NCBI RefSeq assembly: GCF_003382685.1
Contig: NZ_KZ859505.1
Location: 73,897 to 137,896 of the forward strand
Source: Halorussus litoreus
GTDB lineage: Archaea; Halobacteriota; Halobacteria; Halobacteriales; Haladaptataceae
Direction of reading: 5' to 3'
DNA length: 64,000 nucleotides
Each line of letters opens with the position of its first letter. Position 1 is the stretch's first letter. The notes below the pieces were generated by a model. It saw only the letters and a program-made list of their open reading frames with translations. It was not told the DNA's origin and ran no database searches. This document shows positions 2 through 54,502 of this stretch, piece after piece. The position numbers and the translations under genes were made by a program.

Positions 2-610
<609 letters not shown>

Positions 611-2301: not shown

Positions 2302-3579
2302 ATGGTTCCCAGTTCCTCCCGCCGGACCGCCCTCCTCGGGATCGGCTCCGCCGTCGTCGGCTCCACTCTCTTTGGCTCCACCGCCTCGTTCGCCGACCGA
2401 CTCGGCAGCGCCGAGTCGGTCGGCGAACGAGGCGGTCAGTCGACGGACGATTCACCGTCGAGTACCGCCCACGATTGGCCGATGGCGCGGTACGATGCCG
2501 CCGGGACCGGCTACAGTCCGGACGCCTCCGGGCCGGGCGAGAGCGTCCGGGTGAAGTGGCGTCGCGAGCCGGACGACTTCTCGGGCGGCACCGGCTCGCC
2601 CATCCTCGTCGGCGGCACCGTCTACGCGACCAGCGGGACTCTCGTCGCGCTCGACGCGGAAACTGGCGAGACGCGGTTCTCTACCCAGGGCTCGTATCGG
2701 TCGAGTCCGGCGCGGGCCGACGCGCGAGCCTACCAGACCGACACGCTGGCGGTCGCGTCTCCGCGGGGGGTCTTCGGACTCAACGCGGGTGGCGGCCTCC
2801 GGCTTCTCGGCCGCGAGTTCGGCGTCGAGCGCTGGCACGGTCCCCGCTCGGAGTCGCGTACCACCCTGTTCGGACCGCCGACCGCTCCCCCGCCGGTGGT
2901 GGTCGACGGCAGGGTGTACGCCGCGATTCCCGGGACCGACCACGTCGTCGCGCTCGATGCGAGCAGCGGCCGCGAACTGTGGCGGGCCTCGCCCGACGAC
3001 GAACTCCGCCGTCCCGCGGTGAGAGACGGGCGACTGTTCGCGGTCAACTGGCCGTATCAGGTGACCGCGTACGACGCCGCGACCGGCGAACGGGACTGGC
3101 AGACCCAACTCGACGAACAGATGGTGCTCGCGCCGACCGCGACCAGCGACGCGGTCGTGGTTCCCGACCGCCTCGGCGTGACTACGCTCGACGCCAGCGA
3201 CGGCAGCCTGCGCTGGCGATTCGACCACGACGGCAACGCGACGGAGGGGGCCGCGACGGTCGCCGAGGACGTACCTGCTGATAGCGAAGACACCGTCTTC
3301 GTCCAGTCGGCGGGCGGCGACGGACGACTCCACGCGGTCGACCTCGCCACCGGCGAGGAACGCTGGTCAGCGCCGGTTTCGGGTGAAGGAACCCCCGTGG
3401 TCGCCGACAGCGTGGTGTACGCGGCGGGCCACCGCGAGATCGTCGCGTTCGACGCGACCGCCGGGGACGTTCGTTGGCGTCACGAAACCCGACTGCCGGT
3501 GTCGACGCCCGCGGTCGGAGACGGTGCGCTGTACGCCACGACCCACGGGCAGATTATCGCGCTGGAGGCGGACCGATGA
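2302..3579 (+). CDS. Exported PQQ-repeat (BamB-like) beta-propeller protein
   Basis: A 425-residue protein. The N-terminus has a twin-arginine signal (SSRRTALLGIGSAVVGS), with cleavage likely near SFA at about residue 31. The mature part contains repeated PQQ-type blades: VALDAETGETRF, VVALDASSGRELW, VTAYDAATGERDW, VTTLDASDGSLRW, LHAVDLATGEERW and IVAFDATAGDVRW. The family forms a beta-propeller scaffold, in haloarchaea usually extracytoplasmic; substrate or partner is unknown. Codons 27-45 are formed by a perfect 27-bp inverted repeat with a 3-nt loop (see separate entry). The stop overlaps the next gene start by 4 nt (ATGA), so it is probably co-expressed with the downstream membrane protein. 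Confidence 0.85.
   Translation: MVPSSSRRTALLGIGSAVVGSTLFGSTASFADRLGSAESVGERGGQSTDDSPSSTAHDWPMARYDAAGTGYSPDASGPGESVRVKWRREPDDFSGGTGSPILVGGTVYATSGTLVALDAETGETRFSTQGSYRSSPARADARAYQTDTLAVASPRGVFGLNAGGGLRLLGREFGVERWHGPRSESRTTLFGPPTAPPPVVVDGRVYAAIPGTDHVVALDASSGRELWRASPDDELRRPAVRDGRLFAVNWPYQVTAYDAATGERDWQTQLDEQMVLAPTATSDAVVVPDRLGVTTLDASDGSLRWRFDHDGNATEGAATVAEDVPADSEDTVFVQSAGGDGRLHAVDLATGEERWSAPVSGEGTPVVADSVVYAAGHREIVAFDATAGDVRWRHETRLPVSTPAVGDGALYATTHGQIIALEADR
2380..2436. repeat. 57-nt perfect hairpin inside the PQQ-protein coding sequence
   Basis: Positions 2380-2406 and 2410-2436 are exact reverse complements (27 bp) separated by agc at 2407-2409. The repeat begins at the first base of codon 27 and covers exactly 19 codons. 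It encodes the signal-peptide C-region and the first mature residues (TASFADRL...GERGG). Confidence 0.95.
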
Positions 3580-4433
3580 GCGAGAGCGCACCCACGGACG
3601 TCAGGAACCCCGACCGCGACCGAGCGGGGGGACCGTCTGCGACCGCCATCCTCGCCGAATCCGTCCGCCGAGTCGTCCGCGACCCGGCGCTCGCGCTTCC
3701 GTTCGCCATCGTCGGGGTCGTCCTCGCGCTGGTCGACCGACTGCGGCTCCGCGATCCGGTGCCGACGACGAGTCCCGATCGGGTCGGCGACGTATCGGTC
3801 GGCGTCTCGTTTCCGGTGTACCCGTCGGGGGTCAGGTCGACCGGCCTCGACCTCGCCGCGCTGGTGGACCTCCGGCCGTGGTACCTGCTTCGGACGGTCG
3901 GCCTCGAAGCGCTGGCCGTCTTCGCGGTCGCGTTCGCGGGCTGGCTGACGATCTCGCGAGCGGCCGGAGTGACCCCGTCGCGCGAGCGCCTCGTTTCGTA
4001 CCTCTGGTTCGTCGTCGCGGTTCGGATACTCCTCGGTGCGTTCGGCCTCTTCGACGACCTCGCGTGGGTCACCCTGCTCGCTCTCGTCGCGCTCGCCGTG
4101 GCGTTCGTCAGGCTGTTCGCTGCGCCCGCGCTGGTCGTCGTCGGGGGCGATGGGCGAGAAGGAGACGAGGCGGGCGAAGGTGACACGGGTAGCGTTTACG
4201 CGGCTGCGAGCCGGAGCAGTCGGCTCGCTCACGGTCGCGGCGCGACGGTGTTCGGGCTCGTCGTCGCCTTCGGCGTCGCAGCGTGGCTGCTCGGGAGCGT
4301 TCCGGCGGTCGGCGCGCTCGCCAGCACCGCGCTGGTCGCGCCGGTCCACGCCGTCGCGGTCGTGACGTTCGTGGAATCGGTCGACCCGGACCGGAATCGC
4401 GCTGCTGCGTCCGGAGCGGAGCGACGCCACTGA
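3576..4433 (+). CDS. Polytopic membrane protein, co-transcribed with the PQQ protein
   Basis: A 285-residue protein starting at ATG 3576, overlapping the upstream stop (ATGA). A longer in-frame extension to 3474 exists but would overlap the PQQ gene by 100 nt, so the ATGA start is preferred. Several hydrophobic segments are visible: LALPFAIVGVVLALV, LEALAVFAVAFAGWL, VTLLALVALAVAFV, GLVVAFGVAAWLLG and LVAPVHAVAVVTFV. The short N-terminus is charged. I do not recognise a named family. Translational coupling suggests it works with the beta-propeller protein at the membrane. Confidence 0.75.
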   Translation: MSESAPTDVRNPDRDRAGGPSATAILAESVRRVVRDPALALPFAIVGVVLALVDRLRLRDPVPTTSPDRVGDVSVGVSFPVYPSGVRSTGLDLAALVDLRPWYLLRTVGLEALAVFAVAFAGWLTISRAAGVTPSRERLVSYLWFVVAVRILLGAFGLFDDLAWVTLLALVALAVAFVRLFAAPALVVVGGDGREGDEAGEGDTGSVYAAASRSSRLAHGRGATVFGLVVAFGVAAWLLGSVPAVGALASTALVAPVHAVAVVTFVESVDPDRNRAAASGAERRH

Positions 4434-8160: not shown

Positions 8161-8485
8161 CCCGGCGCGTGCTGGCGCGGGTTTATCCCGCGCCAAACCG
8201 CGCGAGGGACGAGGACCGCAGGCCGTAGGCCGAGGACCGCAGGAGGCTGGGGAGGTACGAGGCTTTTGCGGTGCGGTCGCAGTGCTGTGGCGGTGCGGTC
8301 ACGCCTATGCTCAAGCAGTAGCTAGCTTCCCGGATCTGTCTACCATTCCTTCGCCTTTCTGCCCTCTATTGATTCGGGAGAATGCTGAACAGAGACGCTA
8401 GCTACTGCTTGAGTCTATGAAGACAGCATCCGCACCGCAACCACACAGCATTGTTCCCACCGCAACCACACAGCACTGCTCACGC
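8161..8485. repeat. Dispersed palindromic element, copy A
   Basis: It fills the 486-nt spacer between the aminotransferase and UbiA genes, which has no convincing ORF. The left edge is cccggcgcgtgctgg, followed by hairpin GGCGCGGG-tttat-CCCGCGCC, the motif gcgcgagggacgag, hairpin GGCC-gta-GGCC, then gaggctggggaggt and a G/C-rich tract. The centre is a perfect 17-bp inverted repeat, ctcaagcagtagctagc (8310-8326) and its complement at 8397-8413, with a 70-nt loop. The right arm repeats accgcaaccacacagca, imperfectly complementary to the left tract. Related to copies at 13732, 24290, 28290 and 32424. Confidence 0.85.
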
Positions 8486-41013: not shown

Positions 41014-41078
41014 GCCACGGGTTTCACGAACGCTCGCCATAAATTTCCGGGACTGCGAAAGCCCATCCCGTTCCGCGT

Positions 41079-41124
41079 GGGTGAGGCCGCGGTCGCGCTC
41101 GTGAGCGCGACCGCGGCCTCACCC
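41079..41124. repeat. 46-nt near-perfect hairpin upstream of the DUF7847-like gene
   Basis: gggtgaggccgcggtcgcgctc (41079-41100) is an exact complement of 41103-41124 with only gt as spacer. It lies about 65 nt upstream of the minus-strand start at 41013 and far upstream of the plus-strand start at 41356. The 342-nt divergent region contains no ORF. Confidence 0.93.
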
Positions 41125-41274
41125 ATCGCGGTGGCGTTTCGGATCACTCGACACCAAATCGTCTCTTGGTCGCCGCGTAACAGCGTTTTTGCACCAGTTT
41201 GTTCAACCGCAGAGTGGGTCTCGCGGTGAGCGTGCAGCGAGACTGCGCGCCGAGCGCGAATGACAGCACCGCGG

Positions 41275-41318
41275 GTCTCGGATTGCGCGACCGAATTCTC
41301 GGCCGCGCAATCCGAGAC
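41275..41318. repeat. 15-bp inverted repeat upstream of the bPH2 operon
   Basis: gtctcggattgcgcg (41275-41289) and its exact complement (41304-41318) flank a 14-nt spacer. It lies 38 nt before the start at 41356, close to where a TATA-box would be, so it could be an operator or transcript hairpin. An extra 7-bp pair gtctcgc/gcgagac surrounds 41225-41252. Confidence 0.8.
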
Positions 41319-43388: not shown

Positions 43389-45266
43389 ATGACCGACTAC
43401 GACCACGACTACGAGGACCTCGGCCTCGTAGCTGGCCTCGAAATCCACCAGCAACTCGACACCGAGACGAAGCTGTTCTGTGAGTGTCCGACCGAACTCC
43501 GCGAGCCCGACGAATCCGAGCGGCGGTTCACGCGCTTCCTCCACCCGACCAAGAGCGAACTCGGCGAACTCGACGACGCGGCCGTCGAGGAGAGCCGGGT
43601 CGACCGCGAGTTCGAGTACCTCGCGTACGACACGACCTGTCTGGTCGAGGAGGACGACGAGCCGCCCCACCGACTCGACGCGGAGGCCCAGGAGGTCGTC
43701 CTCGAGATCGCACAGCTGCTCGACATGAACGTGGTCGATCAGGCCCACGTCATGCGCAAGATCGTCGTCGACGGCTCGAACACCTCGGGATTCCAGCGCT
43801 CGACCCTGATGGCCTCCGATGGGGAAATATCGACCAGCGAGGGGGCGGTCGGCGTCGAGGACCTGCTGCTCGAAGAGGAGAGCGCCCAGCGCGTCGAAGC
43901 GACCGACGACGGGGTCCGGTACTCGCTCGACCGCCTCGGCATCCCGCTCGTGGAGATCGGCACCAAGCCCGACATCCGCTCGCCCGAGCAGGCCCGCGAG
44001 GCCGCCGAGCAGATCGGGATGCTCCTGCGCTCGACCGGGAAGGTCAAGCGCGGGCTGGGCACCATCCGGCAGGACCTCAACGTCTCCATCGCGGAGGGCG
44101 CACGCGTCGAGATGAAGGGCGTCCAGAGCCTCGACGACATCGACGACCTCGTCGAGAACGAGGTACACCGGCAGGTCCGCCTGCTCGAGCTCCGGGACGA
44201 ACTCCGCGAGCGGGACGCCGAAGTCGGTGACCCGACGGACGTGACGGCGGTCTTCGAGGGTTGCGACTCCGGCGTCATCGGCGGCGCGCTCGACTCTGGC
44301 GGGAAGGTCACCGCGGTCCTCCTCTCGGGCTTCGACGGCCTCGTGGGAGCCGAGATTCAGCCCGACCGGCGACTCGGCACGGAACTCTCGGACCACGCCA
44401 AGCGCCACGGCGCGGGCGGTATCTTCCACACCGACGAACTCCCGGCGTACGGCGTGACCGAGCAGGAGGTCGCCGACCTTCGCGAGGCGGTGGGCGCAGA
44501 CGAGCGGGACGCGGTCGCCATCGTGGCCGCGGACCCCGAGACGGCTGACCTCGCCATCGAGGCCGCCGCCGACCGCGCCGAGACCGCACTCGACGGCGTT
44601 CCAGAGGAGACCCGCGGCGCGAACGAGGACGGGACGACTCGGTACCTGCGCCCGCTGCCCGGCGCGGCCCGGATGTACCCCGAAACCGACGTTCCCCCGG
44701 TCGAACCCGACCCGAGCGAGGTCGAGACTCCCGAACTCCTGACCGAGAAGGTACAGCGGTACCAGGACGAGTACGGACTCGACGCCGGACTCGCCGAGCA
44801 GGTCGCGTACGGCGAGCGCATGCCCCTGTTCGAGCGAGCGGTCGAGGAACTGGGCGTCGACGCCACGCTCGCGGCCGGAACCGTCGAGAGCACCGTCACG
44901 GAACTCCGGCGCGACGACGTGCCGGTCGAGACCCTGACCGACGACCACTTCCTCGGGACGCTCGAACTCGTCGCGGCGGGCGAGACGGCCAAGGGGAACG
45001 TCGGCGAACTGCTGACGGTCCTCGCCGAGACCCCCGATCTCACCGCGGCCGAGGCGGTCGAACAGGAGGATCTCGGTAGCGCGGACACCGACGAGGTCCG
45101 CGAGGCCGTCGTGGAGGTCGTGGAGCGAAACGAGGGACAGGTCCAAGAGCAGGGTATGCAGGCGTTCTCCGCGCTGATGGGCGAGTGCATGGGCGCGCTC
45201 GGCGGGAACGCCGACGGCGACCTCGTGAGCGAACTCCTCCGCGAGGAGATCGGCAAGCGCGCCTGA
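43389..45266 (+). CDS. gatE: Glu-tRNA(Gln) amidotransferase subunit E
   Basis: A 625-residue archaeal GatE. With GatD it converts Glu-tRNA(Gln) to Gln-tRNA(Gln), as archaea lack glutaminyl-tRNA synthetase. N-terminal GatB-like core: LVAGLEIHQQLDTETKLFCE, HVMRKIVVDGSNTSGFQRST, SLDRLGIPLVEIGTKPDI and GLGTIRQDLNVSIAEGARVEM, then an insert resembling AspRS (residues 290-400) and a YqeY-like tail (PLPGAARMYPETD, MGECMGALGGNADGDLV). A TATA-like gttttttac (43356-43364) is 28 nt before the ATG. GatD is not in the window. Its stop lies in a 40-nt perfect palindrome. Confidence 0.95.
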   Translation: MTDYDHDYEDLGLVAGLEIHQQLDTETKLFCECPTELREPDESERRFTRFLHPTKSELGELDDAAVEESRVDREFEYLAYDTTCLVEEDDEPPHRLDAEAQEVVLEIAQLLDMNVVDQAHVMRKIVVDGSNTSGFQRSTLMASDGEISTSEGAVGVEDLLLEEESAQRVEATDDGVRYSLDRLGIPLVEIGTKPDIRSPEQAREAAEQIGMLLRSTGKVKRGLGTIRQDLNVSIAEGARVEMKGVQSLDDIDDLVENEVHRQVRLLELRDELRERDAEVGDPTDVTAVFEGCDSGVIGGALDSGGKVTAVLLSGFDGLVGAEIQPDRRLGTELSDHAKRHGAGGIFHTDELPAYGVTEQEVADLREAVGADERDAVAIVAADPETADLAIEAAADRAETALDGVPEETRGANEDGTTRYLRPLPGAARMYPETDVPPVEPDPSEVETPELLTEKVQRYQDEYGLDAGLAEQVAYGERMPLFERAVEELGVDATLAAGTVESTVTELRRDDVPVETLTDDHFLGTLELVAAGETAKGNVGELLTVLAETPDLTAAEAVEQEDLGSADTDEVREAVVEVVERNEGQVQEQGMQAFSALMGECMGALGGNADGDLVSELLREEIGKRA

Positions 45267-45295
45267 GCGCCGCCGCGGCGGCGCTCAGGCGCGCT
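45256..45295. repeat. 40-nt perfect palindrome spanning the gatE stop codon
   Basis: Positions 45256-45275 and 45276-45295 are exact complements with no spacer (agcgcgcctgagcgccgccg and its complement). TGA at 45264-45266 is inside the left arm, so the last three sense codons of gatE are part of it. A transcript would form a 20-bp hairpin, a candidate terminator or cruciform. Confidence 0.93.
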
Positions 45296-50619: not shown

Positions 50620-50630
50620 CGAGCGAGTCC

Positions 50631-50682
50631 GGTTGCTCGGCGAGTCCGCGGCGGCGCGCCGCCGCGGACTCGCCGAGCAACC
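50631..50682. repeat. 52-nt perfect palindrome between convergent genes
   Basis: 50631-50656 and 50657-50682 are exact complements (26 bp, ggttgctcggcgagtccgcg followed by gcggcg) with no spacer. Flanks gagtcc and gcgcgt are not complementary, so the arms end sharply. Related fragments gcgagtccg (50624-50632) and cggagtcaccgagcaatcgc (50696-50715) lie on either side. Confidence 0.95.
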
Positions 50683-50745
50683 GCGCGTACCGTCGCGGAG
50701 TCACCGAGCAATCGCACAGTGTCGACAACAACTGGTCGAACTCGC

Positions 50746-53162: not shown

Positions 53163-53311
53163 TTGCTCGGGAAGTTGGGATTCGGCGGTGAAAAAGAGCG
53201 CGTTCTGTTCGCGCTCGCGGCCGCGCGCCGCTCCGGGTAGTCCCGTCGGGGACTCTGACGACCGCAGGCGAACCGACCTCCTTTTTGTCGCTCGCTCCCT
53301 GCTACCCGGAC

Positions 53312-54502
53312 ATGCAGAACGTCACCGCCGCGGGGCTGGGTATCGGCGACGACCACCCGCCGCGGATCATGGGCGTGCTCAACGTCAGCGAGGAGTCGCC
53401 CTACGACCCGAGCGTGTACGACGACCCGGGCGAAGCCGCCGCGTACGTCGACTCGGAGCTCGTCGGCGAGGGCGCGGACATCGTGGACGTGGGCCTCGAA
53501 TCCGCCAACAAGCGCTTCGAGGTGCTGTCTGCCGAGGAAGAGCTCGACCGGCTCGACACCGCGGTCGAGGCCATCGAGAGCGTCTCGGGCGACCCCGTCT
53601 TCTCCATCGAGACGCGCTACAGCGAGGTCGCCGACGAGGCGCTCTCGCGGGGGTTCGACATGGTTAACGACATTTGCGGGTTCGCCGACCCCGAGATGCC
53701 CGTGATTTGTCGCGAGCACGACGCCGCCGTGGTCAAGATGGCGAGTCCGCCCGACCTCGAACGCCCCGGCGCGGTGGAGAAACCCGACGACATCTACGAA
53801 GCGCTGAAACGCGGTGGCCTGACCGACAAGACCATCGTGGACCCCGCGTTCGGCGGCTGGTCGGAGGACAAGACCCTCGAAGACGACCGCGAGACGTTCC
53901 GCAGGCTCCGGGAGTTCCGCGGGCTGGGCCAGCCCATTCTCGTCTCGATCAACCGGAAGAACTTCCTCCGAGACCTCGCAGACAGGAGCACCGAGGAGGC
54001 GCTACCGGTGTCGCTGGCCGCGACCTCGATGGCGGTCGAGCGCGGCGCGCACGTGATCCGAACGCACGACGTGGCCGAGACCGCCGACGCCGCGAAGATC
54101 GGCGCGGCGTTCACCCGCGACCGGGTCCGGACGGCGATTCCGGGCGATGAAGGAGATCGCGAAACCCTCCGAGTCGAGGAACTGGACGTGACGACCTCGG
54201 GCGAGGCGGCCCGTCACTTGGAGCGCATCGCGGCCTCGTCGACCAGTGCCGACGAGGCCGCGATGCGCGTGGTGGAACTGTCCGGGCTTTCGAGCGACGA
54301 GCGCGAAACGCTCGCGCAAGCGGCCACGGACGCGGGCGTCACGGTCGAGCCGGGAGATCCGACTACACGGGGTGATTCCGCGATCTTGCTCGCGGGAACG
54401 CTCGCCGGATTGGATCGGCTCCAGCGCACGGTGGAACCGAACTCCGACCGGATCGTCGCGGCTCTCGCGGCTCTCGAAGCTGTCGAAGACCCGGAACGTT
54501 AA
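53312..54502 (+). CDS. folP: Dihydropteroate synthase
   Basis: A 396-residue TIM-barrel enzyme that condenses p-aminobenzoate with hydroxymethyl-dihydropterin diphosphate. Recognisable parts: [14 protein letters not shown] (strand 1), [34 protein letters not shown] and [15 protein letters not shown]. It is about 110 residues longer than bacterial FolP (280 aa); residues 270-396 form an extra alpha/beta part ([20 protein letters not shown]). ATG 53312 is 28 nt after ctttttg (53281-53287), fitting a leaderless transcript; the longer start at 53285 lies on the promoter. Confidence 0.9.

What the first reader, a model, noticed from the sequence alone, without database searches (positions are those of the whole stretch)
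2380..2436. In-frame 57-nt perfect palindrome in a protein-coding gene
A 27-bp exact inverted repeat with a 3-nt loop covers exactly codons 27-45 of the PQQ-protein gene, right after the signal hydrophobic core. It begins and ends on codon borders. Perfect pairing of this length inside a gene is unlikely by chance and recalls coding palindromic insertions. It could slow translation at the export signal or mark an inserted element.
Basis: partly seen in the sequence, partly recalled or inferred. Interest (0 to 1): 0.7.

Follow-up and report, generated by a model that had tools for sequence, protein, structure and literature searches.

The report
Template-switch palindrome inside an archaeal gene
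A perfect 57-base mirror-image sequence really does sit inside this salt-loving archaeon's gene, and it is one of roughly 130-145 such unrelated perfect palindromes estimated across its genome (perhaps about 1,200 in a sister species), most likely made when the DNA-copying machinery briefly doubled back on itself.

Summary
In detail: an exact 27-bp inverted repeat with a 3-nt loop at 2380-2436, codons 27-45 of a Tat-signal PQQ-type beta-propeller gene of a Halorussus species (about 2e-8 expected per genome by chance). It is not a copy of a repeat family: nothing like it recurs in this genome or 27 family genomes. It is one member of a genome-wide class. 852 kb of this genome holds 32 perfect short-loop hairpins with arms of 15-30 bp (3 may be assembly-related), where Markov simulations gave none above 13. 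Other Halorussus species are richer (G005: 68 in 200 kb), while several have essentially none. The palindromes have unrelated sequences, are nearly all-or-none in arm identity, and are depleted in coding DNA in the two best-sampled genomes. Orthologues show two signatures: an inserted inverted copy (photolyase gene) and one arm overwritten to match the other without an indel (dihydropteroate synthase gene, window 54223). Both fit replication template switching. At the PQQ site, orthologues lack the palindrome and have a shorter linker, but which arm is new cannot be decided. The mechanism is known; its patchy, extreme accumulation in some haloarchaeal genomes appears undescribed. The enzymatic cause is unknown.

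The parts
2302..3579 (+). Host gene: secreted (Tat, RR motif) PQQ-type / BamB-like beta-propeller protein, 425 aa
   Evidence: (PF13360 E 1e-54)
2380..2406 (+). Left arm of the perfect palindrome, codons 27-35 (TASFADRLG)
   Evidence: some resemblance by eye to Haladaptatus salinisoli 'LADRVGS'
2407..2409 (+). 3-nt loop (AGC)
2410..2436 (+). Right arm, exact reverse complement of the left arm, codons 37-45 (AESVGERGG)
41078..41125 (.). Another perfect palindrome of the class: arms 23, loop 2, between genes
45256..45295 (.). Another: arms 20, loop 0, across the 3' end of a predicted gene
50630..50683 (.). Another: arms 27, loop 0, between convergent predicted genes
54223..54268 (.). Another: arms 19, loop 8, inside a dihydropteroate-synthase-like gene (53285-54502); left arm overwritten to match right arm, no net indel
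41275..41318 (.). Possible further member: arms 15, loop 14, in a predicted gene
   Evidence: loop longer than the rest of the class, so membership uncertain

Best explanation
The palindrome is a mutation product, not an element or a signal. During replication or repair the growing strand paused at a short GC-rich self-complementary spot, folded back (or jumped to the opposite strand), copied about 27 bases of its own recent product in reverse complement, and then returned to the original template. That leaves a new inverted copy next to the old one; repeats of the same event restore perfect pairing when mutations arise. It persists here because the linker between the Tat signal and the beta-propeller tolerates about 10 extra in-frame residues. 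Shown: the perfect palindrome; its absence from orthologues; the genome-wide class; the insertion and overwrite signatures at sister sites. Inferred: the replication step itself, continuing correction, and which arm is new at this particular site.
For: (1) Genome-wide class with no shared sequence: 32 hairpins with arms of 14 bp or more in 852 kb (31 of them 17-30 bp), none above 13 bp in third-order Markov simulations, and only one weak similar pair among them. (2) Photolyase gene: removing 9 codons covering the right arm (SRIGDRTLL) raises the summed alignment score to 14 orthologues from 3557 to 3688, whereas removing the left arm lowers it to 3494. (3) M20 peptidase gene: palindrome lies in an insertion of 14-35 residues. 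(4) Dihydropteroate synthase gene: no net indel against most orthologues; the left arm differs more than the right arm in 15 of 16 orthologue comparisons, most clearly at 7-11 against 2-5 mismatches, as expected if one arm was rewritten from the other. (5) In species G002, palindromes correspond to near-palindromes in this genome, 14/16 and 11/14 pairs. (6) Identity is close to all-or-none: 23 perfect, 10 with one and 5 with two mismatches here; 53 of 58 perfect in G005. (7) Depleted in coding DNA: 15/32 here, p 9e-5; 26/68 in G005, p 1e-12. (8) Both outcomes are documented for template switching: palindrome expansion and correction in rad27-deletion yeast (PMC5677150); creation of perfect stems by one event (PMC8794818).
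Against: At the PQQ site the linker varies so much among orthologues that deleting either arm improves alignment almost equally (1634 and 1638 against 1617), and the best single deletion is only 5-7 codons overlapping the left arm. So direct evidence is weaker here than at the photolyase and dihydropteroate synthase sites. Three of eight measured coding palindromes in this genome show no net insertion. No strain of the same species without the palindrome was available. Simple fold-back models predict loops of 3 nt or more, yet loops of 0-2 are common, which favours a jump between strands or seeding at tiny existing palindromes. No enzymatic cause was identified.
Confidence: 0.77

Rival explanations
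1. Mobile palindromic element inserted in frame, in the manner of Rickettsia palindromic elements or REP/REPIN sequences.
For: In-frame insertion in a tolerant linker; many palindromes in the genome.
Against: No sequence family: own-genome and family-wide searches find only itself plus short weak matches; all-against-all comparison finds one weak pair in G000 and nine weak or partial pairs among 68 in G005; the dihydropteroate synthase case rewrites resident sequence without adding any.
Confidence: 0.04
2. Selected hairpins: transcription terminators, mRNA stabilisers or translation-slowing structures.
For: In this genome the between-gene palindromes favour convergent gene pairs (8 of 14 in about 22% of intergenic bases). 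The RNA fold is very stable.
Against: In G005, with 42 between-gene palindromes, density is the same for tandem, divergent and convergent gaps (102, 104, 90 per 100 kb). Many lie inside genes in unrelated positions. Sister species have none at the same genes. Archaeal termination relies on T-rich tracts rather than hairpins (general knowledge).
Confidence: 0.08
3. Sequencing or assembly artefact (fold-back chimeras, collapsed consensus).
For: This assembly is a 75-contig draft; two of the 32 hairpins lie within 25 nt of N gaps and a third is a poly-C/poly-G run next to one.
Against: No N in the window; the gene reads through in frame with conserved sequence on both sides; palindromes are depleted in coding DNA; the same class occurs in few-contig assemblies G005, G012, G002; the overwrite case is not a chimera pattern.
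Confidence: 0.06
4. Palindromic junctions left by opening of hairpin-capped DNA ends after breaks or transposon excision (P-nucleotide-like repair).
For: Would also give locally derived inverted copies of variable sequence with short loops (inference; no tool result points to it specifically beyond).
Against: Does not readily produce arm overwriting without length change or near-binary perfect identity; no transposon remnant was looked for systematically.
Confidence: 0.05

Closest known systems
Coding palindromes of Nematomorpha mitochondrial genes (Mikhailov et al. 2019, PMC6649704)
   Same: Many long, perfect inverted repeats inside functional genes, scattered and gained or lost between species, binary identity, template switching proposed
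   Different: Mitochondrial and up to 284 bp there; here a cellular archaeal chromosome, arms 14-30 bp, both in and between genes, and orthologues show insertion and overwrite events
Template-switch / quasipalindrome-correction mutations (yeast rad27 deletion, PMC5677150; S. cerevisiae genes, PMC8604942; RNA stems, PMC8794818)
   Same: New inverted copies or correction of an imperfect palindrome to a perfect one; both seen here
   Different: In those systems detected as rare or mutator-dependent events; here roughly 130-145 (this genome) to about 1,200 (G005) standing palindromes estimated per genome, in some species and not their sisters
Rickettsia palindromic elements
   Same: Palindromic, in frame, tolerated in proteins
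   Different: They are a repeat family described as selfish and as losing arm identity over time (PMC6649704); no shared sequence and little loss of identity is seen here
Genome-wide inverted-repeat surveys (PMC13155455; PMC4060949)
   Same: Count perfect short-loop inverted repeats across prokaryotes; archaea overall have few
   Different: A text search for words beginning 'halo' found none in either paper, and total counts at 8-10-bp arms would hide an excess that lies in the long-arm tail

Membership tests
Template-switch-derived palindrome | New arm is the reverse complement of adjacent resident sequence | tested here: met
   Perfect arms; photolyase right arm absent from orthologues while left arm is retained. 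At the PQQ site itself inconclusive.
Template-switch-derived palindrome | Correction of a pre-existing imperfect palindrome (one arm rewritten from the other) | tested here: met
   Dihydropteroate synthase site and G002 sites; not shown for the PQQ site
Template-switch-derived palindrome | Observed as a single mutation event in a parent-offspring comparison | not testable with these tools
   No same-species strains held; mutation-accumulation data needed
Rickettsia palindromic element / REP-type repeat | Members share a conserved sequence | tested here: not met
Rickettsia palindromic element / REP-type repeat | In-frame insertion in a tolerant protein region | tested here: met
Functional terminator or regulatory hairpin | Placed consistently relative to gene ends and conserved between species | tested here: not met
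   no orientation bias in G005, though convergent bias in G000; not conserved

The most novel reading that the evidence does not exclude
Some Halorussus lineages carry a heritable, hyperactive palindrome-making and palindrome-correcting state (a replication/repair change or an acquired factor) that comes and goes between sister species and has written hundreds to more than a thousand perfect palindromes, including new in-frame protein segments, into their chromosomes.
Probability: 0.35. Interest if true: 0.8.

Novelty: new variant of a known kind. Interest (0 to 1): 0.6.

Why it matters
Template switching is usually inferred from rare events. A genus whose species differ from about zero to about 34 long perfect palindromes per 100 kb would be a natural mutator comparison: the gene responsible could be sought by contrasting sister species (for example G005 against G008, G002 against G006, G000 against G001). 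It also shows a route by which new in-frame protein segments arise in one step, and why some haloarchaeal genomes may be hard to assemble.

Tried and rejected
Dispersed element: rejected. Short matches on both strands in other Halorussus genomes first looked like family members; they are other hairpins with similar GC-rich motifs. Loss of hairpin- or flap-processing genes as the cause: FEN1 (PF00867) and RNase HII (PF01351) are present in all 18 genus genomes, and a Rad50-sized AAA_23 frame in the 7 tested, so simple loss is excluded; the Rad50 zinc-hook model was not informative. Boundary or centre motif: only weak enrichment for G/C. Terminator function: no orientation bias in G005. A literature search for haloarchaea plus perfect palindromes found nothing in the open library, and Halorussus plus palindrom- found only unrelated papers; that library omits most subscription papers. 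Searches returned input errors and were not needed.

Full report
Observation. The palindrome is exact: ACCGCCTCGTTCGCCGACCGACTCGGC-agc-GCCGAGTCGGTCGGCGAACGAGGCGGT at 2380-2436, codons 27-45 of ORF 2302-3579, a secreted PQQ/BamB-like beta-propeller protein with a twin-arginine signal (the Tat reading is from the RR motif and hydrophobic stretch, not from a predictor). Chance expectation for arms of 27 bp in the whole genome is about 2e-8.

Not a repeat family. The stretch matches only itself (both strands) in its own genome, apart from a 34-base partial match at 85%. In the search of 28 family genomes (this one and 27 others) the other hits are short and at E 6e-6 or weaker. Inspecting them showed other, unrelated hairpins in several relatives, which prompted a direct scan for hairpins.

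A genome-wide class. Scanning 852 kb of this genome for perfect hairpins with loops up to 12 gave 32 with arms of 14 bp or more. 31 of these have arms of 17-30 bp and only one lies between 14 and 16, so they form a separate group rather than a tail. Third-order Markov sequences of 395 kb, three times over, gave none above 13 bp. Two of the 32 lie next to N gaps and one is a poly-C/poly-G run beside a gap, so 29 is a conservative count. Extrapolated to 3.84 Mb this is about 130-145 palindromes. The window itself holds five, including the one reported.

Patchy in the genus. Per 100 kb: G005 34, G010 17.5, G002 14, G012 13, G015 6, G000 (this genome) 3.8, G006 2.5, G009 and G017 1.2, G003 0.5; none found in 60-80 kb of G001, G004, G007, G008, G013, G014 and G016. 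Samples are small, so the zeros mean 'below about 5 per 100 kb'. On a three-gene tree the rich species are interleaved with poor ones (G005 beside G008, G002 beside G006, G000 beside G001), although some nodes are weakly supported. G005 extrapolates to about 1,200. Typical arm length also differs: mostly 17-28 bp here, 14-20 in G005.

What they look like. The palindromes share no sequence, arms are GC-rich (0.80 against 0.67 in flanks), and loops are mostly 0-4 nt. Arm identity is close to all-or-none: 23 perfect, 10 with one mismatch and 5 with two here; 53 of 58 perfect in G005; no such stems at all in the G003, G014 and G016 samples. They are depleted in coding sequence: 47% against 78% expected here (p 9e-5), 38% in G005 (p 1e-12), but not in G002 (11/14). 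Gene calls are from a simple codon model of my own, so coding fractions are approximate. Depletion and intact frames argue against an assembly artefact.

What happened at the sites. Orthologue comparison gives two signatures. Insertion: in the photolyase gene the right arm is a 9-codon insertion whose removal restores alignment to the relatives, while the left arm is ancestral. In an M20 peptidase gene the palindrome lies in an insertion of 14-35 residues. Across all measured gene pairs, 59% of palindrome windows are at least 5 residues longer than the orthologue, against 9.6% of control windows; these pairs are dominated by four genes and are not independent. Gene by gene, five of eight coding palindromes of this genome with a measured orthologue show net insertion. 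Overwriting: in the dihydropteroate synthase gene at window 54223 there is no length change against most orthologues, and the left arm carries the excess of differences (left greater than right in 15 of 16 comparisons). In G002 several palindromes have near-palindromic counterparts here (14/16 and 11/14 pairs).

The reported site. Orthologues in Halorussus and Haladaptatus lack the palindrome, and the protein here is 4-18 residues longer than the nine measured orthologues. The linker is so variable that neither arm can be named as the new one. Start and end on codon borders is a one-in-three coincidence.

Mechanism. The combination of locally derived inverted insertions and arm overwriting is the known fingerprint of template switching at replication forks, with both outcomes recorded in rad27-deletion yeast (PMC5677150) and in RNA stem evolution (PMC8794818). 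The overall picture, numerous perfect palindromes of binary identity that come and go between species, closely parallels the coding palindromes of nematomorph mitochondria (PMC6649704), where the authors also propose template switching and an unknown maintenance peculiarity. What drives it here is not known. FEN1, RNase HII and Rad50-like genes are present, so it is not simple loss of those genes; their sequence changes were not examined.

Verdict. The single palindrome is most likely a neutral or nearly neutral mutation product in a tolerant linker.

Noticed in passing
L054:13809-13896 (G000 contig C5, just before the window) and window 3-42: A hairpin, an N gap and G/C homopolymer runs lie together at the window's left edge; similar gap-plus-hairpin or gap-plus-homopolymer spots occur at L190:17202-17264 and L184:14171-14227, suggesting the assembly breaks or is patched at hard-to-read hairpins.
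   Followed up: partly
L071-L080 (G005, 200 kb): About one long perfect palindrome per kilobase of intergenic DNA in this Halorussus species, with no preference for gene orientation.
   Followed up: partly
G000 intergenic regions: In this genome, unlike G005, intergenic palindromes favour convergent gene pairs (8 of 14).
   Followed up: no
G000, G005, G002 arm lengths: Each palindrome-rich species has its own typical arm length (mostly 17-28, 14-20 and 14-18 bp), as if a species-specific length limit applied.
   Followed up: no
window 8266-8479: Several overlapping imperfect inverted repeats with 18-27-nt arms and 50-160-nt spacing cluster between two genes.
   Followed up: no
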